Of a DNA stretch of 59,972 nucleotides, positions 4,391 through 59,972 are shown piece after piece (the first letter of the stretch is position 1; each line of letters starts with the position of its first letter). Origin of the DNA: a virus; the IMG/VR virus record IMGVR_UViG_3300043219_000134, positions 1 through 59,972 of that record; one strand, written 5' to 3'. The translations under genes and the position numbers were made by a program. The notes below the pieces were generated by a model. It was not told the origin of the DNA and searched no databases. It was given only the letters and a program-made list of their open reading frames with translations.

Positions 4391-4432
4391 GTCTGCAATA
4401 GGGAGTCGAACCCTATACATAAACCATGCAGA
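4391..4432 (-). ncRNA. Mini-tRNA-like element E2
   Basis: The transcript folds TCTGCA, a 10-nt linker, ATAGGG-TTCGACT-CCCTAT, then TGCAGA. That is twelve stacked pairs, the length of an acceptor plus T-stem, capped by a canonical TTCGANN T-loop. It starts one base after the stop codon of the gene at 4434-4931. It is the best-paired example of the set. Confidence 0.6.
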
Positions 4433-31980: not shown

Positions 31981-32138
31981 TAGTCTTCCTCCAATAACTC
32001 GGCTAAGTTCTCAAAGACTGATATATCTTCATGAGGATACTTAGGGTCAGTTTCTATTTGCACTAAGTTGCAAGAATCAGTCGAGTCGCAAAACTCTAGA
32101 GTGCAATGTTTGCATATCTCAGGGTCAAACTTAATCAT
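31980..32138 (-). CDS. Cysteine-rich microprotein, 52 aa
   Basis: Cysteines at about 9, 12, 17 and 23 (CKHC, then C, C) could bind one metal ion. The C-terminus is acidic. The phage motif GACGGGGGAG immediately precedes the ATG and provides its ribosome site. It overlaps the co-chaperonin gene by eight bases. Confidence 0.6.
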   Translation of the reverse strand: MIKFDPEICKHCTLEFCDSTDSCNLVQIETDPKYPHEDISVFENLAELLEED

Positions 32139-32460
32139 CTTCTCCCCCGTCAGAGTCATAGAAGAAACATTCGATGTTTGATTCTTTAATAACTACATAT
32201 TGTTCATCTTCGATTTCCATATTGACTTCTAGTACCTCGTCAAATAGAACTCTAACTCCTACTTTACAGGCGTCCTTATTGGATATGTCGTTTCCGATTG
32301 CTACTATTATGCCCATATTATCTATGGAGCCTTTAGCCGGATCGTTTACCATCCAGATTAATCCGCTCTTAGTTTGCGTAGGTCTATCTAATTTTTTAAT
32401 AAAAACTCTATTTCCATTAGGCTGGATCAAGTTTGCTATTGAAGGTTTTTTCTTGCTCAT
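32131..32460 (-). CDS. GroES-like co-chaperonin
   Basis: The pattern IQPNGNRVFIKKLDRP (about 12-27), then GIIVAIG, VGVRVLF and DEQYVVIKESNIECFF matches the Cpn10 beta-barrel from end to end; length 109 aa is about normal. It would cap host GroEL and help fold phage proteins, as T4 gp31 does for the capsid protein. I start at the internal ATG 32458-32460, with GAAGGAACGAA upstream. Mobile-loop residues (about 28-45) are only loosely conserved. Confidence 0.8.
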   Translation of the reverse strand: MSKKKPSIANLIQPNGNRVFIKKLDRPTQTKSGLIWMVNDPAKGSIDNMGIIVAIGNDISNKDACKVGVRVLFDEVLEVNMEIEDEQYVVIKESNIECFFYDSDGGEDD

Positions 32461-32662
32461 TTCGTTCCTTCTCATAAAGGTAAAACAGACTACTATTTAG
32501 CGCTTCCGTTAAGAAAGGTTTAATAGTATCCGTTAGACACTCTTCACCATTAAGATATATATCATATATATAAGGCTTTAGGTCTTCCGTCTCTGCAATT
32601 TCAACTACAAACGGCAATGTAACCTGAATAGGTATATCAATTGTCTGTATAGCTTCGTCCAT
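32417..32662 (-). CDS. Hypothetical protein, 81 aa
   Basis: Small acidic protein whose 3' end overlaps the co-chaperonin gene by 44 bases in another frame. AAGGAGTAATAGA stands before the ATG. No family recognised. Confidence 0.6.
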   Translation of the reverse strand: MDEAIQTIDIPIQVTLPFVVEIAETEDLKPYIYDIYLNGEECLTDTIKPFLTEALNSSLFYLYEKERNEQEKTFNSKLDPA

Positions 32663-36765: not shown

Positions 36766-39531
36766 TTAATGTTTGGATTTACCTACCACTTTGAAGGTCT
36801 TTGGATCGAATGAACCAAGTTCCCCAAGGGAGTAGCCAATTTCAGGGTCTATCTTAAACTCTCGTACGATACCCTTAATAGTTACGGGTCTAGTCATTTC
36901 TTCGGACACGATTTTATAAACTGCTTCCAGTTCCTCTATTGGAACTTCATAGTTTAATTCGTCGTATACGTAGAGGACTAGTTCGGCTTTGAGATTAAGC
37001 TTTCGTAATCGTTTATGTATCCGTATCATAGCCCTGTTTACGATATCTGCGGCTGTGCCTTGAATTGGCGTGTTCATAGCCTCTTTTCGTATGTCTCTCT
37101 CGTTCCCATAAAGGTAACGTCTTCGACCAGAGATATAAGTTTCTACATATCTTTTATCATTTGCTTGTTCAACTATTTCATCTACCCATTCTCGATACTG
37201 AGGATGTGCCTCCATATAAGAGGATCGTGCCTCTTTTATATCTTTCAGTAGTAGTTTAGTCTCGGGATACTTAGATATAATGTTTCCATGTATCACTGAG
37301 TCTCCACCTCCATAAGAGGAGGCAAACTGATAGATTTTTGCGGCTTTCCTAAAAAGCTTGAATCTGGGATCATCCGGTTCGAGTCCGAACAACGCCTTAG
37401 TATTCTCGTCATGCAAATCTAGACCGTCATTGATAATTGATAAAAGGTGACGATCTTTTGTAACGTAGGCTAGAACAACATTCTCTATACCTTTGTAATC
37501 ACAGGAGAGGAATACATGTCCATCTTTCGGCGTAAATATGTTACGCAACATAGGGCAGTTTTCTTTTGAAGGGAACGTAAAGAGGTTAGGTTTGGAGGAC
37601 GAAAATCTTCCAGTACTAGTACCAGTAACTTTAATATTACTATGCACTCGTCCGTCTGCTCTGGTTTCCCAAAAGTAGTATGAACTTTTTAATTTATTTA
37701 TTGAGGCGAACTCATTGTAAGACTTAATTATTTGTAACATCTTTTCAATTTGCTCGACTTCTTCTCTAAAGTGTTTCTTCTTTCCGGTGCTTTCGTCAGC
37801 ATCCCATGCTTTAAGACCCTTGATAGAGTTAATCCTCTTAATCAGGGCAATCGAATAGGTCTCTCTGAATGCATCGTCAAGTTGCTTTTTATTCGACTCT
37901 TTGGTAGTTTTACATTTAAAGTTGCGTAATACATACGGGGGAGAATAAGATTCCACCTCCATAATACCAGCAATTTTTAACCAGTCCTTTGTCTCCTTGG
38001 ACTTTACCTTACCTTCTTGCTCTCGGGTTGTCTTGTGCCATTGACCAGTTTTGCATTTACGGCATTTAGTGAAGAGACCTAACTTAAGGTTTGGATTTAA
38101 GCTAACCTCTCTACTATCGTCCTGTGTAAATAGTTTCTTCGTACCGCAGATGGGGCATTCTCCCCCGTATTGAGTCCACGGTTCATATTTCCACGCATTA
38201 GGTAATTGTTTCTTTGCCTTAGACGAGGATTCACCTAGCCATACTCTGAGCATGTCGTCCTGAGAAGTTAGAGATAACTCTGGAGGAACCTTAGAGATTT
38301 CTCTAAAGTCTTTCTCTGCCTTTATCGCTGACTCTTTTAGCCACTTTTGTAGCTCAACTAGTCTCTTCTTGTCTATATGTAGTCCCACTTGGGACATTCG
38401 TACAACTATCTCGGTAAGGTCTTTTTGCTCCTGATAAAGATCCATTAGACCCTTATCGGCACATTCTTTTAACATAGCTTCATACATTGGTACAAGTGCT
38501 ACACAGTCTCGTGCATTGTATCGGCGCATCTTTTCCTGATCGGTATAATAAATATGCTCTTTCTTAGTTATGAAAGAGTCTTTCCAATAGGGTAGTTTAC
38601 CATAAAAACTATTGATAAACCCGATATCATGTTTTAACTCTGGATTGATAGTATGGTGAAGTAACATTGTGTCACCCTCGAAGGCTCGATGTTTTATATC
38701 AAATCCGTTAAAAGAATTGTTTAGTACTGGTATATCATAATTCGGTCCATTTTGCCATATGATACCTTTGCAGTAGTCGAATAGCTTTTGGACAGCTATC
38801 TTTACTCGCATCATGCCGTCGAAGTTAAAGGCAGATTCTCCCCCGTATTTCTTAAAGGGTATAACTATTGCTTCCGATTCTGACCAAGCTAATCCTAGCA
38901 CTACAGCCTCAGAACGATTCAAGTTGAGTCCTGTACCTTCAATGTCACCATAAAGGACTACTTGTTCTTCTATCGCCCAATCTACAAACTTTTCTACCTC
39001 TTCTACGGTAGGGTCTAACTGGAAATTCTCCTTGGGTCTCTCCCAACCTTCATCCGCTATAAAAACGGACTTACGCATATCATTCTGAAACATACAACAT
39101 CTAGTTGCATCACCTGAACCTATTTTTGACCACCTCTTACTATTAAGGAGTCTTTGATCGTAGGTAGGAATGACCCAATATTTCTTGCCGTTTCTAGTCC
39201 AGTCCATTACTGAACCTCTATACTTTTCGATTTTACTTTCTCCAAGTATAGTCTTCATGATATTTTCACCCAATAGTACAATTACTTTGGGCTGTATTAT
39301 AGCTATTTTTTCATCTAATAATTTAAAATTAAAATCTAAGTTCCCATCCTGAAAGTCAGCCTCGTCATTCCAAAACTGTTGAAAGACCATATTTGACCAA
39401 CTTATCTTTGCACTCGAAATTGACCAGAACATAAACCTAGAGTCTTGATCTTTAAAACCACGACCCTGCATTATATCTGCGTCGGAGGGATAATCACCTA
39501 GAACTAGAATATCTCGTTGTGATAATTCCAT
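36766..39531 (-). CDS. DNA polymerase family A with UDG-like N-terminus
   Basis: 921 aa. Residues about 1-155 resemble a uracil-DNA-glycosylase fold (VLGDYPSDAD, KVIVLLGEN, VIPTYDQRLL), with degenerate active-site residues. About 190-350 is a DnaQ-like 3'-5' exonuclease (GDIEGTGL, NGPNYDIP, YNARDCVAL). About 640-900 is the polymerase: TGRFSSSKPN, motif A FLSCDYKGIE (D678), motif B RKAAKIYQFASSYGG, motif C YVYDELNYE. Between them is a four-cysteine zinc ribbon (C459, C462, C490, C493). Leader contains ATTTAAAAAAGT then AAAGGAAC. Confidence 0.93.
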   Translation of the reverse strand: MELSQRDILVLGDYPSDADIMQGRGFKDQDSRFMFWSISSAKISWSNMVFQQFWNDEADFQDGNLDFNFKLLDEKIAIIQPKVIVLLGENIMKTILGESKIEKYRGSVMDWTRNGKKYWVIPTYDQRLLNSKRWSKIGSGDATRCCMFQNDMRKSVFIADEGWERPKENFQLDPTVEEVEKFVDWAIEEQVVLYGDIEGTGLNLNRSEAVVLGLAWSESEAIVIPFKKYGGESAFNFDGMMRVKIAVQKLFDYCKGIIWQNGPNYDIPVLNNSFNGFDIKHRAFEGDTMLLHHTINPELKHDIGFINSFYGKLPYWKDSFITKKEHIYYTDQEKMRRYNARDCVALVPMYEAMLKECADKGLMDLYQEQKDLTEIVVRMSQVGLHIDKKRLVELQKWLKESAIKAEKDFREISKVPPELSLTSQDDMLRVWLGESSSKAKKQLPNAWKYEPWTQYGGECPICGTKKLFTQDDSREVSLNPNLKLGLFTKCRKCKTGQWHKTTREQEGKVKSKETKDWLKIAGIMEVESYSPPYVLRNFKCKTTKESNKKQLDDAFRETYSIALIKRINSIKGLKAWDADESTGKKKHFREEVEQIEKMLQIIKSYNEFASINKLKSSYYFWETRADGRVHSNIKVTGTSTGRFSSSKPNLFTFPSKENCPMLRNIFTPKDGHVFLSCDYKGIENVVLAYVTKDRHLLSIINDGLDLHDENTKALFGLEPDDPRFKLFRKAAKIYQFASSYGGGDSVIHGNIISKYPETKLLLKDIKEARSSYMEAHPQYREWVDEIVEQANDKRYVETYISGRRRYLYGNERDIRKEAMNTPIQGTAADIVNRAMIRIHKRLRKLNLKAELVLYVYDELNYEVPIEELEAVYKIVSEEMTRPVTIKGIVREFKIDPEIGYSLGELGSFDPKTFKVVGKSKH

Positions 39532-41017: not shown

Positions 41018-41225
41018 TGTTTTCAAACTCCTCGTCCTGTGTATGCTCTACTTCTAGAATCTCGTACTCTACTTCTAGAGTTTCGGCTTCTTCCTCTGGA
41101 CTGAGGGTTAAGTCTGGGCTGAACCCTTCTGGGTTGTAATCAACCTTTCTCCCCCGTCCGAATAATAAATATAGAGAACCAAAAAGTCCTCCCGTTAATA
41201 ATAATATAATAATAAATTGTGTCAT
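40860..41225 (-). CDS. Membrane-anchored acidic protein, 121 aa
   Basis: N-terminal membrane helix (about 4-22), then a very acidic soluble part (about 45-90). It could be the inner-membrane partner of the overlapping 157-aa protein. GAGGATAAAGA upstream. Confidence 0.6.
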   Translation of the reverse strand: MTQFIIILLLTGGLFGSLYLLFGRGRKVDYNPEGFSPDLTLSPEEEAETLEVEYEILEVEHTQDEEFENNVTKIKEETSLMSPIDLADDINSFYGVDKPERDITVTDDKSKFDWENNPSKE

Positions 41226-42193
41226 TCTTTATCCTCCAACGCTCTTAACCCCATAATACTAGGGTTTGCTAACTGATTTACCCATGATGGGTATCCTTCA
41301 CCTAGTGTAGAGGATAACTCCAGAGTCATAGTGGGTTCTTGTGGTGTTGGGTTAACTTTTTCTGGACTACATATCATTGTTGTAGCCTTATCTGTAAAGT
41401 ATTTAGATTGGCATTCCCTAGCTTCTTCAATAGTATCGAAGCTTTTTATAATTCTACCTGTAGTCTCACAAATTTCTTTTGCTTCTAAAAGACCTAGTCC
41501 TGTGGCTTCTCTTATCGCTTTAATAAGGGGTATTTTACCATTTTCCTGATAATTAACAAATAGTAGGTCAAACTTTTCTTCTTCTTTCTTAGTTTCAATT
41601 TTAGTTGCAGATTCCGGTTCAGACATTACCGTTCCGGCTGTACTTTGAATTAGGGCTAGCTTTTGTATATGTTTTTCTTCCGAGAAGGAAAATACTTTTA
41701 GGATATCTTCTACTGATGGAACGTCCCAAAACCAAGGATGGTAAAAAGAGTATTCTCCGGTAGACACTTTACAAGTAGATACTAATCTTTTATCGCCTGT
41801 CCCTTTATAGTAAAGTGTTCCTCGTACTTCATTAGATAGCATTCCAGCTGGTCTATGCTCATTCCGTCTGGGAGAACTTGTAGATAGTCTACGAAGGATT
41901 ACTCCTACGGGTACGTCCTTGTCCTCTTTTTTATTAGTAGAGTCGTCTCCAATATCATTAGATACTCGATGATAGTCTCTGTGTTGAAGACGGAATGTTT
42001 TTGCATTAGCCATTTTTAGAAAGATGTTTGATAGGTAGCCGTTGTGACAATCTACGTTAACCTGTTGACTAACTTTATGAACCGCTTTTTGATCTGGGGT
42101 GAGTTCTTTTACCCAAGGGAACGAGTTCATGAAGTCTGTAGAGATTTTATGTAGATACTCTGCAAGTTCCCTGTACTGCTCTGTTTCTCTCAT
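41222..42193 (-). CDS. Protein with internal ribosomal L7/L12 C-terminal-like domain, 323 aa
   Basis: Residues about 206-272 (KIPLIKAIREATGLGLLEAKE, then TIEEARECQSKYF) carry the signature of the bacterial ribosomal stalk protein L7/L12 C-terminal domain, which contacts translation GTPases. Around it are unrelated segments: an unknown N-terminal 200 residues and a C-terminal disordered 50. It may recruit or divert translation factors (inference). Start overlaps the previous stop. Confidence 0.65.
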   Translation of the reverse strand: MRETEQYRELAEYLHKISTDFMNSFPWVKELTPDQKAVHKVSQQVNVDCHNGYLSNIFLKMANAKTFRLQHRDYHRVSNDIGDDSTNKKEDKDVPVGVILRRLSTSSPRRNEHRPAGMLSNEVRGTLYYKGTGDKRLVSTCKVSTGEYSFYHPWFWDVPSVEDILKVFSFSEEKHIQKLALIQSTAGTVMSEPESATKIETKKEEEKFDLLFVNYQENGKIPLIKAIREATGLGLLEAKEICETTGRIIKSFDTIEEARECQSKYFTDKATTMICSPEKVNPTPQEPTMTLELSSTLGEGYPSWVNQLANPSIMGLRALEDKE

Positions 42194-53742: not shown

Positions 53743-53788
53743 ACTACTAGTGGGGACTCGAACCCCATGTACTCCACCGTTCTAGTAG
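53743..53788 (-). ncRNA. Mini-tRNA-like element E3
   Basis: CTACTAG, 14-nt linker, TGGGG-TTCGAGT-CCCCA, CTAGTAG: all seven terminal pairs and all five T-stem pairs form, with a canonical T-loop. D and anticodon arms are absent. Confidence 0.65.
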
Positions 53789-53839
53789 TAGTGATTACCT
53801 TTTCACGTTTGTATTCATCCGAGGGAGGTATACCCTCTA

Positions 53840-53882
53840 TGGGAAAAGGCGGAATCGAACCGCCGATTAAAAACCTTATTCC
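53840..53882 (-). ncRNA. Mini-tRNA-like element E4
   Basis: T-arm GGCGG-TTCGATT-CCGCC followed by TTTTCCC-A. The 5' partner (GGAATAA, 5 of 7 pairs) is imperfect. It starts one base after the stop of the L7/L12-domain gene. The T-arm itself is certain; the terminal helix is weak. Confidence 0.45.
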
Positions 53883-53883
53883 G

Positions 53884-54306
53884 TTAAATCTTTTTTACGA
53901 GTGTAATTAAAAAAGTTGAGCTACCAAACCATTGTTCCTCAAAATTCCTTGCTTCTTTTTCTGTAGCAAAGGTTTTTATTGTTGAAGGGACTGCTTCAAC
54001 AAGATCTTTTGCTTCTTTAAGACCAAGACCAGTTGCTCCACGAATAACTTTAAGTGTAGGAATTATCATTCCATCAGTGAACTTTACAAATCTCACAGCC
54101 CACTCTTCTCTAAAAGTTGGGTTGTCTACTGCGGGTAAGTCTTCCTCTTTAATTACTTTACGAGTTAACGTAATGTCGTACTCTGAACTAAGTAGTTCTG
54201 CGTATTTTAAGGTGCTTTTTAAAGATACACAAAATGTAGCTATAGAGTCCAGTTCAGTTCTGTCTCTAAGTTTTACTAATTCATCTTTTATTTCGTTTGT
54301 TGTCAT
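53884..54306 (-). CDS. Ribosomal L7/L12 C-terminal-like protein, 140 aa
   Basis: Residues about 65-137 include PTLKVIRGATGLGLKEAKDLV (in two parts, about 73-93), the hallmark sequence of the L7/L12 C-terminal domain, with a following segment (KEARNFEEQWFG) in the right place. The N-terminal 65 residues are not the L12 stalk-dimer domain. It could bind or decoy translation factors. Followed by E4. Overlaps the next upstream gene by four bases. Confidence 0.75.
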   Translation of the reverse strand: MTTNEIKDELVKLRDRTELDSIATFCVSLKSTLKYAELLSSEYDITLTRKVIKEEDLPAVDNPTFREEWAVRFVKFTDGMIIPTLKVIRGATGLGLKEAKDLVEAVPSTIKTFATEKEARNFEEQWFGSSTFLITLVKKI

Positions 54307-55481: not shown

Positions 55482-55526
55482 TGGAGAAAATGGGAATCGA
55501 ACCCAAACTTATGTACCAACTTCTCT
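55482..55526 (-). ncRNA. Mini-tRNA-like element E6
   Basis: AGAGAAG, 13-nt linker, TTGGG-TTCGATT-CCCAT, TTTCTCC-A. Six of seven terminal pairs and four of five T-stem pairs form. The 5' strand and linker are the last codons and stop of the gene at 55509-55715. Confidence 0.5.
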
Positions 55527-55729: not shown

Positions 55730-55775
55730 TTAGTCAAGGGGGAGTCGAACCCCCACTAGATCACCAGATTAACTT
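55730..55775 (-). ncRNA. Mini-tRNA-like element E7
   Basis: AAGTTAA, 14-nt linker TCTGGTGATCTAGT, GGGGG-TTCGACT-CCCCC, TTGACTA-A. Six of seven terminal pairs and a perfect T-stem form. The stop codon of the gene at 55774-56094 overlaps the 5' strand. Confidence 0.55.
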
Positions 55776-57192: not shown

Positions 57193-57240
57193 AAGCAACA
57201 AGGGGAGTCGAACCCCTCCAATACCTTTTTGCTAACTGCT
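57193..57240 (-). ncRNA. Mini-tRNA-like element E8
   Basis: AGCAGTT, 16-nt linker, AGGGG-TTCGACT-CCCCT, TGTTGCT-T. Six of seven terminal pairs (two G-U) and a perfect T-stem. An alternative 5' strand AGCAAAA is closer. Overlaps the stop of the gene at 57232-57489. Confidence 0.5.
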
Positions 57241-57489
57241 CTCACTAGCTTGATTTGCTTTTAGTTTTTCTAATCTCTCTTCTAAATCAGCTATTTCGTT
57301 CTGTATTAATTCTGACTCAGTAAATCTCTTCTGTGCATCATACCGCATGGAACCACCTGTTTCACCCATTTCCTGTACTACTAAATGGGTTGCCCCGTTT
57401 TCTTTAGCAGATTTAAGAAAGGTTATAATTTCATCTATAGGGTTTTGACAACTACCTGTAAATATATTTACAGTCTTACTAAAATTCAT
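57232..57489 (-). CDS. Hypothetical protein, 85 aa
   Basis: Starts at ATG 57487-57489 behind AAAAGGAGACAAT. Small mixed domain then a C-terminal coiled coil (EIADLEERLEKLKAN). It is the first gene after the large non-coding tract. No family. Confidence 0.65.
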   Translation of the reverse strand: MNFSKTVNIFTGSCQNPIDEIITFLKSAKENGATHLVVQEMGETGGSMRYDAQKRFTESELIQNEIADLEERLEKLKANQASESS

Positions 57490-57539
57490 ATTGTCTCCTT
57501 TTATTCTTAAAGCAACGGGGCAGTTTGACCCACCCAAGA

Positions 57540-58768
57540 AACTCTTTTGTCTCTCTGAACATCCCCGAAGGGACTTCGCGTCACTATTTATTTAGAAGTA
57601 TTTTTGTTAATTTTATTTAGCTTCGTGCTTAAGTAATAGTGCTCGCTTATGGTATGGCGCTTTCATCGGGGTCTAAGTGGGGAATCATTCCTGATTTCCA
57701 TATCGCCAAGGTTGCTAATCCCTGTTGTGCGCCTTTCTATATTTGACCTTCAACTACTATTACTCCCCTTCCTTTACGACAGGTGTATTTTAATAAACAA
57801 TACTTTTGTCTTCGGCATGGGGCACATGACCAGATTTCTTACCGTCTGGCTTGGTCGAGTCACTTCTGACTCGTAACACATTGGTAGGTTGAGAAAGTCC
57901 TCGAGATTACTTATCGCCCATAAGGACTATAAATTGGTAATCTTTTTAACTCAACAGTAGTTTCAAGCATTCTGGAATTGTCTGTTCCTAGAATAACTAT
58001 CATGCAAATAGACTATCTTAAAGCAGTAATATGTTCTTTTCCACCGACTCTCACGGCTACCCACTTCGTCTACAAGCGACCTTTTTGTCCACGGGGTATT
58101 ACCCCGATTCGTGTTTGGGTTTCCTAGTCCCTCAACCGCGCAAGCCTTACTCTCACACTCTTTGCGGTTTCTACCTGCCAGTTAATATTTCAATGATCTA
58201 AACCACCTACTACTAAATATCTGACTCTGTCCATGCGACTGTAGAATATATCTCAATTCCATCTCGCCCCGTCTTGGACTTAATTATTTATTGGGCTATA
58301 TCTCGTCCCGTAGTGTTCACTGATTATACTGGTTGAACTCCCAGATTTAGACTTGTGTAATATAAGCCTGAAAGGGTTAACTTGGCTTTGAACCATAATC
58401 TATAACTGCACTATAAATAGGGTCATATTTCCGTGACTGAATTTGTCTAGTTCAGGCGTGTCTATAAATAGTGTCGGTTACAATTAAATTAACCTTAAGA
58501 GTGTACCGGATGCTTTGATACTAAGTCGCCGATTACTCTCGCCTTTAAATAAATACCCCACTCTATTAGGATAAGTTTGTTAATTAACTAGTCAGCAGAA
58601 GGGGTATCAATCCCAAAATAGACCTGTACGAGATACGATCGGGTTTGACCCTAGTGACACCCCCTTGGACTCACTCGCTCTCTTGGACTCTTTATTATTT
58701 ACCCATGATAACCACCTCCCATTCTTTGTTCTACAACAATGTGTTGTGCAAGTAACCTCTATTAGATA
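57540..58768 (-). ncRNA. Candidate giant structured non-coding RNA, ~1.2 kb
   Basis: No gene with good features is present between 57490 and 58910, an extreme gap in a genome that otherwise leaves few bases unused. A strong leftward promoter starts it. On the minus strand there are many folds: CGAGTCA-GAAG-TGACTCG (57856-57873), CGGGG-TAATA-CCCCG (58092-58106), GTCCC-TTCG-GGGAT with a C(UUCG)G loop (57561-57574) and an 11-bp helix between 58655-58666 and 58599-58609 enclosing further hairpins. Such phage RNAs (GOLLD, ROOL) are known; identity with them is not claimed. Confidence 0.55.
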
Positions 58769-58774
58769 CTTACA

Positions 58775-58803
58775 ACTTTAACATGGGGTTAAAAGGTTGT
58801 CAA
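58775..58803 (-). promoter_or_regulatory. Strong promoter of the large non-coding tract
   Basis: TTGACA (58798-58803), 17 bases, TAAAGT (58775-58780) preceded by TG (extended -10 type). Predicted start near 58768, reading into the gene-free tract. Confidence 0.65.
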
Positions 58804-58835
58804 GGACTTTTTTTAAAAGTTCAATGGTTTTGCTA

Positions 58836-58866
58836 TTTAACAGGATACTATTTGCAACCTGTTAAA
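58836..58866 (-). other. 9-bp hairpin downstream of 58911-59285
   Basis: TTTAACAGG, 13-base loop, CCTGTTAAA, perfect. It lies between the end of the upstream gene and the promoter at 58775-58803. No T-run follows, so it may insulate or process rather than terminate. Confidence 0.4.
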
Positions 58867-58910
58867 GTCCAATAGAGTATTTAACAACTCTACTTAGGTA
58901 TTCTATAGGG

Positions 58911-59285
58911 TTAACTTAAACCTGTCAACTCTTTTTGTATTTTATTTTGCATTTCTTTTTTCCAGATTATTCTGTAAGACATTTTATAGTTCTCATTTAA
59001 GAACTTATAGAAAGATGGCTTACAAATAGTCTGTTCTGTGAATGTTCCTGTGTATTGCTCCGCACAATATTCATTTATGAAGCGTACCAGAGCTTTTAAC
59101 TGAGAGTAACCATTACTATAATATATATTTGCTACAATAACTAATCGAAATCTATCATGTTTATATACATATGCCTCAGTTATATTTTTATCCTGCCTAG
59201 CTAAGACTAATTTTATTATACCTTTACCATCCAGAGTGTCAGTAATAGCATAACGATTCATAGTATGTTTAATTTTCTCAATCAT
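58911..59285 (-). CDS. Hypothetical protein, 124 aa
   Basis: Basic soluble protein with a lysine-rich C-terminus; no recognised motif. GGAGGTAAAATT before the ATG; overlaps the previous gene by four bases. Confidence 0.7.
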   Translation of the reverse strand: MIEKIKHTMNRYAITDTLDGKGIIKLVLARQDKNITEAYVYKHDRFRLVIVANIYYSNGYSQLKALVRFINEYCAEQYTGTFTEQTICKPSFYKFLNENYKMSYRIIWKKEMQNKIQKELTGLS

Positions 59286-59623: not shown

Positions 59624-59879
59624 GTTGAATCCTTCGCCATTCATTACAGACTTTATTCCAGATTGAAAAATCAATGTCGGACTCCCCCCAGTCAATTTGA
59701 TCTACCCAACTAGATACATCGCGGTATGATTCAAAGACCTCTTTTAAACAGGTAGCTTCAAAAAAGACACCATCAGGTTTAAAACTTCTAAGGTAGGCAC
59801 TATAAAGTCTTTTTGACTTTAAAAAAGTTACAAATTCCTGTTGTTCAGGGGTTAATTTTGATTTTTTATTTTTTAACAC
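59604..59879 (-). CDS. Hypothetical protein, 91 aa
   Basis: Starts with GTG behind GGGAGGCGCTAC. Soluble, tryptophan-rich C-terminal half (SSWVDQIDWGESDID, NEWRR). Once the window ends are joined it directly follows the gene at 81-707 with a 14-base overlap. No family. Confidence 0.7.
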   Translation of the reverse strand: MLKNKKSKLTPEQQEFVTFLKSKRLYSAYLRSFKPDGVFFEATCLKEVFESYRDVSSWVDQIDWGESDIDFSIWNKVCNEWRRIQHEKAKP

Positions 59880-59972
59880 GTAGCGCCTCCCAACGTAGTT
59901 TAAGCTTGTTTAGTTCTTTATCCAGTAGTAGACTTGCAGAACTTTCCGACAGTTTAATCGGGGGTTGACCCT
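59786..59972. repeat. Terminal direct repeat, right copy
   Basis: Right-hand copy of the repeat at 1-187, with three synonymous differences. Joining the two copies makes the gene at 59604-59879 directly follow the gene at 81-707 with a 14-base overlap, as elsewhere in this operon. This supports a circular map of about 59,785 bp. Confidence 0.95.
59866..59972 (-). CDS. Partial copy of the 208-aa gene (C-terminus only)
   Basis: The last 35 codons and stop of the gene that is complete at 81-707, cut by the window edge. It carries the three synonymous differences described for the terminal repeat. Confidence 0.85.
   Translation of the reverse strand, partial: GQPPIKLSESSASLLLDKELNKLKLRWEALRVKK

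What the first reader, a model, noticed from the sequence alone, without database searches (positions are those of the whole stretch)
57490..58910. A ~1.4 kb gene-free tract with its own promoter may encode a giant structured RNA
In a genome packed with overlapping genes, 1.4 kb without a plausible ORF is striking. A TTGACA-N17-TAAAGT promoter with extended -10 feature reads into it from 58803. The minus strand holds stable folds including a C(UUCG)G tetraloop, two perfect GC hairpins, a long-range 11-bp helix and repeated TTGGACT and CTATTTATAG words. Large phage RNAs of this class (GOLLD, ROOL) are known and often lie near tRNA genes; here tRNA-like elements lie just downstream.
Basis: partly seen in the sequence, partly recalled or inferred. 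Interest (0 to 1): 0.88.

Follow-up and report, generated by a model that had tools for sequence, protein, structure and literature searches.

The report
New giant structured phage RNA
A 60-kb environmental phage genome carries, where a protein gene would be expected, a roughly 1.2-kb RNA gene whose fold is preserved in a related phage although its letters have changed; it matches no known RNA family, so it is probably a new class of giant phage RNA.

Summary
The finding holds. The tract at 57,538-58,910 is the longest ORF-poor run in the phage. A related phage contig (L004, terminase 92% aa) has the same tract at the same place. The shared core is 67% identical in nucleotides (83% in its 3' part); six flanking early genes are 47-63% identical. 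18 of 24 indels would break a reading frame. The consensus fold of the two sequences is far better than column-shuffled controls (z -7.2, minus strand) and has 32 base pairs changed on both sides, against 10.7 +/- 3.7 in shuffles. Two tandem TTGACA-N17 promoters, 124-125 bp apart, precede it in both phages. Length varies (about 1.18 kb here, 0.76 kb in L004) through peripheral insertions. Rfam (4,227 families, GOLLD and ROOL included) gives no credible match; only these two sequences were found. The RNA ends at a tRNA-like cloverleaf. This phage also carries six 40-47-nt tRNA-like elements without an anticodon arm, most set between a stop codon and the next gene. I infer that they are processing signals, one of which sets the giant RNA's 3' end. 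Expression, oligomerisation and function are untested. The GOLLD/ROOL comparison holds by analogy only; membership is not supported.

The parts
58900..58928 (-). Promoter P1, TTGACA-N17-TAGAAT
   Evidence: 11 of 12 matches; TTGACA-N17-TAAATT at the same place in L004, 3094-3066
58836..58866 (-). Inverted repeat TTTAACAGG-N13-CCTGTTAAA between the promoters (hairpin in the P1 transcript, or operator)
   Evidence: L004 has TTTAACAAG...CTTGTTAAA: a G-C pair replaced by A-T on both arms
58775..58803 (-). Promoter P2, TTGACA-N17-TAAAGT, extended -10
   Evidence: TTGACA-N17-TAACTT in L004 at 2970-2942, so P1-P2 spacing is 125 bp here and 124 bp in L004
57586..58768 (-). Giant RNA gene, about 1.18 kb from P2 (about 1.3 kb from P1); ends inferred from the promoters and from the cloverleaf
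58460..58768 (-). Window-specific 5' extension (about 310 nt), not found in L004; no unusual fold stability on its own (z 0.35)
57579..58460 (-). Core shared with L004 (67% nucleotide identity over 777 aligned positions)
57635..57761 (-). 3' domain closed by a long-range helix (AAUAGUAGUU / AGCACUAUU) with compensatory changes; about 83% identity
57641..57676 (-). 36-nt invariant block UUAGACCCCGAUGAAAGCGCCAUACCAUAAGCGAGC
   Evidence: an 18-nt part of it is found in IMG/VR only in L004's contig
57587..57618 (-). Conserved A-rich 3' tail AAATAAAATTAACAAAAATACTTCTAAATAAA
57511..57585 (-). 75-nt four-armed cloverleaf (acceptor AGUGACG/CGUUGCU) directly after the RNA; holds the C(UUCG)G loop
   Evidence: predicted -27.4 kcal/mol; L004 has a tRNA-like element with T-arm at the same place, starting at 2172
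57232..57489 (-). Small gene (ATG at 57489; frame open up to 57537) between the cloverleaf and the next tRNA-like element; absent from L004
57194..57233 (-). Mini tRNA-like element: acceptor AGCAA/UUGCU, GGU bridge, T-arm AGGGG-UUCGACU-CCCCU

Best explanation
The tract is a phage gene for a large structured non-coding RNA of a class not in Rfam. Shown by sequence comparison: same position and strand in two related phages, conserved tandem sigma-70-type promoters, no coding constraint, and a multi-helix fold held by compensatory changes, with peripheral insertions that change its length from about 0.76 to 1.18 kb. Inferred: a bacterial sigma-70-type RNA polymerase transcribes it from P1/P2 as the head of a longer minus-strand transcript; since no ordinary terminator follows, its 3' end is set by cleavage (RNase P-like) at the 5' side of the tRNA-like cloverleaf that abuts it, and the same kind of signal separates several downstream genes. 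Inferred by analogy with GOLLD and ROOL, and least certain: the mature RNA acts as an RNA scaffold or multimer during infection rather than as an mRNA, leader or antisense RNA.
For: Longest ORF-poor run in the window. Homologous tract in L004, 67% nt identity against 47-63% for six flanking early genes; 18 of 24 indels not multiples of 3. Consensus fold -104.7 against -57.3 +/- 6.8 kcal/mol in 100 column shuffles, none as low; 32 pairs changed on both sides against 10.7 +/- 3.7, maximum 20. Minus strand folds better than plus (z -7.2 and -5.4). In the 3' domain, sliding the partner strand by 1-3 columns drops pairing from 100% to 32-40% and doubly changed pairs from 6 to 0. Tandem promoters at 124-125 bp spacing in both phages. 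The terminator-like hits on the minus strand after the core are only the hairpins of the tRNA-like elements. A cloverleaf or T-arm element stands at the 3' border in both phages.
Against: Only two sequences are available, so each helix rests on few changes and pseudoknots could not be resolved. The alignment is weak in columns 1-140 and 420-520 (40-55% identity). The window-specific 5' 310 nt shows no unusual stability, and the single-sequence z-score of the window core is modest (-1.7; L004 -3.6). No expression data. The RNase P step has no direct test, and one mini element (55,484-55,525) overlaps the end of its upstream coding sequence by 17 nt, where cleavage would remove the stop codon.
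Confidence: 0.85

Rival explanations
1. It is a divergent GOLLD or ROOL RNA that the Rfam models miss.
For: Size (about 0.8-1.2 kb), phage location and nearness to tRNA or tRNA-like genes fit the descriptions of both classes (PMC12286853). GOLLD also has a more conserved 3' than 5' region, as here.
Against: No match for either at E <= 10 in record-level search and none in a permissive Rfam scan of the tract alone in either phage.
Confidence: 0.08
2. It is a long structured 5' leader or regulatory region of the downstream operon rather than a separate RNA.
For: It lies upstream of small genes on the same strand, with promoters at its head and no ordinary terminator at its end.
Against: A leader of 0.8-1.2 kb with this many conserved helices would be extraordinary. 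The first downstream gene differs between the two phages, so no gene is regularly coupled to it. A tRNA-like element separates RNA and gene in both.
Confidence: 0.07
3. It is DNA structure or filler: a replication or packaging region, or a decayed gene.
For: Phage genomes often have one large non-coding region; inverted repeats also serve in DNA (general knowledge).
Against: The fold is better on the minus than on the plus strand, conserved single-stranded blocks lie between helices, and promoters read into it. A decayed gene would not be better conserved than its neighbours.
Confidence: 0.04
4. It is a self-splicing intron or mobile element.
For: Large structured RNA with long-range helices.
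Against: No Rfam match to group I or II introns. The flanking genes are complete on both sides and homologous to those of L004, so no gene is interrupted.
Confidence: 0.02

Closest known systems
GOLLD RNA (Rfam RF02032)
   Same: Giant structured RNA of phages and prophages, often near tRNA genes; 3' region more conserved than 5' region (PMC12286853)
   Different: No match to the covariance model at E <= 10; here the RNA abuts a tRNA-like cloverleaf rather than lying in an island of ordinary tRNA genes
ROOL RNA (Rfam RF03087)
   Same: Large phage RNA near tRNA islands, complex fold, no associated protein known (PMC12286853)
   Different: No match to the covariance model at E <= 10 (no positive control rang)
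OLE RNA and other large ornate bacterial RNAs (raiA, HEARO)
   Same: Long multi-domain RNA with conserved blocks
   Different: No Rfam match; OLE is a cellular RNA mostly of Bacillota (PMC12054373), not a phage gene
tRNA punctuation of mitochondrial polycistronic transcripts
   Same: tRNA-shaped elements sit between genes, mostly starting within 2 nt of the upstream stop codon
   Different: Here the elements lack an anticodon arm and lie in a phage; processing has not been shown

Membership tests
GOLLD | Match to the Rfam covariance model RF02032 (gathering 150 bits) | tested here: not met
   No match at E <= 10 in the window or in L004's contig; none in permissive scans of the tract
GOLLD | Phage-borne, several hundred nt, near tRNA genes | tested here: met
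   Phage genome; about 1.18 and 0.76 kb; tRNA-Cys 1.5 kb downstream in L004 and tRNA-like elements adjacent in both
GOLLD | Forms a 14-mer RNA cage; expression rises during lysis | not testable with these tools
   Needs transcribed RNA and infection data
ROOL | Match to the Rfam covariance model RF03087 (gathering 99.1 bits) | tested here: not met
   No match at E <= 10; caveat: no control genome rang, so the sensitivity of the search was not demonstrated
ROOL | Forms an octameric RNA cage | not testable with these tools
   Needs transcribed RNA and cryo-EM or mass photometry
Large structured non-coding RNA (general kind) | Conserved secondary structure with compensatory changes and no coding constraint | tested here: met
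   32 doubly changed pairs against 10.7 +/- 3.7; z -7.2; 18 of 24 gaps not multiples of 3
Large structured non-coding RNA (general kind) | Stable transcript in cells | not testable with these tools
   No RNA-seq of this uncultured phage is at hand
Group I / group II intron | Conserved catalytic core, interrupting a gene | tested here: not met
   No Rfam match; flanking genes complete and collinear with L004
Canonical tRNA (the downstream elements) | Recognised by tRNA models, with anticodon arm | tested here: not met
   ARAGORN finds none in the window and Rfam none at gathering; L004 has one true tRNA-Cys

The most novel reading that the evidence does not exclude
A third family of giant phage RNAs, unrelated to GOLLD and ROOL, in a phage that separates its genes and frees this RNA with anticodon-less tRNA-like elements, a phage counterpart of mitochondrial tRNA punctuation; the mature RNA assembles into an RNA-only particle or binds a host machine.
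Probability: 0.3. Interest if true: 0.92.

Novelty: new variant of a known kind. Interest (0 to 1): 0.76.

Why it matters
Giant structured phage RNAs are few (GOLLD, ROOL), and both were recently shown to form RNA-only cages of unknown function (PMC12286853). A further, independent class would suggest that such RNAs arose more than once in phages. Its nearness to tRNA-like genes, which GOLLD and ROOL share, gives a testable link: whether tRNA-type processing makes the mature ends. The mini tRNA-like elements between phage genes are themselves unusual and easy to test.

Tried and rejected
Protein-coding explanation: rejected (no conserved frame). Rfam families by gathering score and by permissive scan: nothing credible; the preQ1-II, SNORD and tmRNA hits are weak, and the tmRNA ones match only the T-arm of the tRNA-like elements. 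More homologues were sought by terminase and flanking-protein searches in IMG/VR, by two DNA patterns in IMG/VR, by terminase and one pattern in 84,980 genomes, by blastn against 50,697 phage records, by nhmmer and by a covariance model of the 3' domain over fetched loci: only L004. The closest annotated phage, vir526 (terminase 35%), has no such region. Default RNAalifold covariation weights on two sequences over-fit, so a reduced weight and column-shuffled controls were used. A longer reading of the element at 57,212 (acceptor AAAGCAA) was set aside because the short form fits the common spacing. A positive control for the ROOL search failed to ring, and the accession tried for a GOLLD control is not held.

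Full report
What the window is. The window is a virus record of 59,972 bases whose ends overlap by 187 bp (184 of 187 identical), so it looks complete. The plus strand of about 5.3-31 kb carries terminase, portal and structural genes; the rest is mostly minus-strand small genes and replication genes. No phage in the 50,697-record collection is close in DNA. The closest by protein is vir526, with terminase and portal about 35% identical. Three IMG/VR contigs are close relatives by terminase: L002 (99%), L004 (92%) and L003 (88%). Only L004 reaches the tract.

The observation. The tract is the longest stretch in the window without an ORF of 80 aa or more (1,373 bp, 57,538-58,910). The runner-up is filled with packed small ORFs. 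Both exist in L004 with 124 bp spacing, and a conserved inverted repeat lies between them. TTGACA-N16-18-TANNNT occurs 7 times in the window against 3.0 expected, so a single such site means little; the conserved pair does.

Conservation. In L004 the same place between homologous genes holds a homologous tract. Over 777 aligned positions the core is 67% identical, 83% in the 3' part. Six flanking early genes are 31-61% identical in protein and 47-63% in DNA. Of 24 gaps, 18 are not multiples of three, and the ORFs of the two tracts do not correspond. Conserved blocks include 36 invariant nt (57,641-57,676) and an A-rich tail (57,587-57,618).

Structure. With a modest covariation weight, the consensus fold of the two cores is -104.7 kcal/mol; 100 column shuffles that keep local conservation and gaps give -57.3 +/- 6.8, lowest -76.5. 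The fold has 152 pairs: 103 unchanged, 16 changed on one side, 32 changed on both sides and 1 broken. Shuffles give 10.7 +/- 3.7 doubly changed pairs, at most 20. The minus strand scores better than the plus strand (z -7.2 against -5.4). In the 3' domain all 66 cells pair, against 32-40% when the partner strand is slid by 1-3 columns. Examples: UGGAA/UUCUA becomes CAAGG/CCUUG at 58,261/58,242; the long-range helix at 57,761/57,635 changes at three pairs; the hairpin at 57,699/57,681 swaps two pairs around an unchanged loop. Invariant complementary blocks such as UCGCUUGU (58,079) with AUAAGCGA (57,643), and GGUAG (58,175) with CUACC (57,883), suggest long-range contacts or pseudoknots, but they do not vary and so prove nothing. 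Length differences sit in peripheral regions, for instance the 22-nt extension of the AACCG/CGGUU hairpin, which could itself form a stem. The window also has an extra 5' part of about 310 nt with no special stability.

The 3' border and the tRNA-like elements. Right after the conserved tail the window has a 75-nt sequence predicted to fold as a four-armed cloverleaf (57,585-57,511, -27.4 kcal/mol); L004 has an acceptor stem, a hairpin and a T-arm there. A scan for T-arms with full stems and a TTCRANN loop finds five in the window, all on the minus strand, against 0.05 expected. A fuller descriptor (acceptor stem, GG bridge, T-arm) finds six such elements of 40-47 nt plus one probable chance hit, against about 0.18 per shuffled genome and 7 in 1.2 Mb of other loci. 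Five of them aligned share a GG column and the T-loop. Of the five that follow a gene, four start within 2 nt of its stop codon; four of the six end shortly before a ribosome-binding site. The L004 counterpart of the element at 55,501 is a true tRNA-Cys. These elements keep the acceptor/T-arm half that RNase P recognises (established knowledge; RNase P also acts on tRNA-like structures and on some intergenic RNAs, PMC11143913) and lack the decoding half. I infer that they punctuate transcripts and that the cloverleaf at 57,585 sets the giant RNA's 3' end. This is not shown. The element at 55,501 overlaps the upstream coding end by 17 nt, which counts against a simple version.

What it is not. 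Rfam has no credible match for the tract in either phage, by gathering score or permissively, and neither GOLLD nor ROOL matches at E <= 10. No positive control for ROOL rang, so this negative is of limited strength. An intron is unlikely given the lack of a core match and the complete flanking genes.

How it most likely works. Shown by comparison: a conserved, structured, non-coding gene with two promoters. Inferred: transcription by a bacterial sigma-70-type polymerase, 3' processing at the cloverleaf, and a role of the folded RNA itself. By analogy with GOLLD and ROOL, which form RNA-only cages (PMC12286853), a scaffold or multimer is my first guess for function, at about 0.35; a protein- or ribosome-binding RNA is the main alternative. 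My confidence that this is a genuine structured RNA gene is about 0.93; that tRNA-type cleavage makes its 3' end, about 0.5.

Noticed in passing
4392-4432, 53743-53789, 53842-53882, 55484-55525, 55732-55774, 57194-57233 (all -): Six 40-47-nt tRNA-like elements with acceptor stem, GG bridge and T-arm but no anticodon arm, mostly placed between a stop codon and the next gene; the first is identical in L002 (4114). Far above chance.
   Followed up: partly
L004 608-690 (-) and window 55484-55525 (-): A true tRNA-Cys in one phage corresponds in position to an anticodon-less mini element in the other, suggesting that such elements derive from or replace tRNA genes.
   Followed up: partly
53884-54306 (-) and 41222-42193 (-): Two phage proteins carry the C-terminal domain of ribosomal protein L7/L12 (Pfam PF00542, E 9e-12 and 2.5e-10).
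   Followed up: no
36766-39531 (-): Family A DNA polymerase with an N-terminal uracil-DNA glycosylase-like domain.
   Followed up: no
32131-32475 (-): Phage-encoded GroES-like co-chaperonin (Pfam Cpn10); the distant relative vir526 also has one.
   Followed up: no
58719-58697 (-): In the window-specific 5' part, a near-perfect Shine-Dalgarno GGAGGTGGT, the only copy in the window, precedes a three-codon ORF ATG GGT AAA TAA.
   Followed up: no
57194-57510 (-): Relative to L004 the window has an extra small gene plus a tRNA-like element between the giant RNA's cloverleaf and the next gene, as if a gene-plus-element cassette had been inserted.
   Followed up: no
1-187 and 59786-59972: Terminal repeat of 187 bp, 184 identical: the record is probably a complete genome.
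   Followed up: yes
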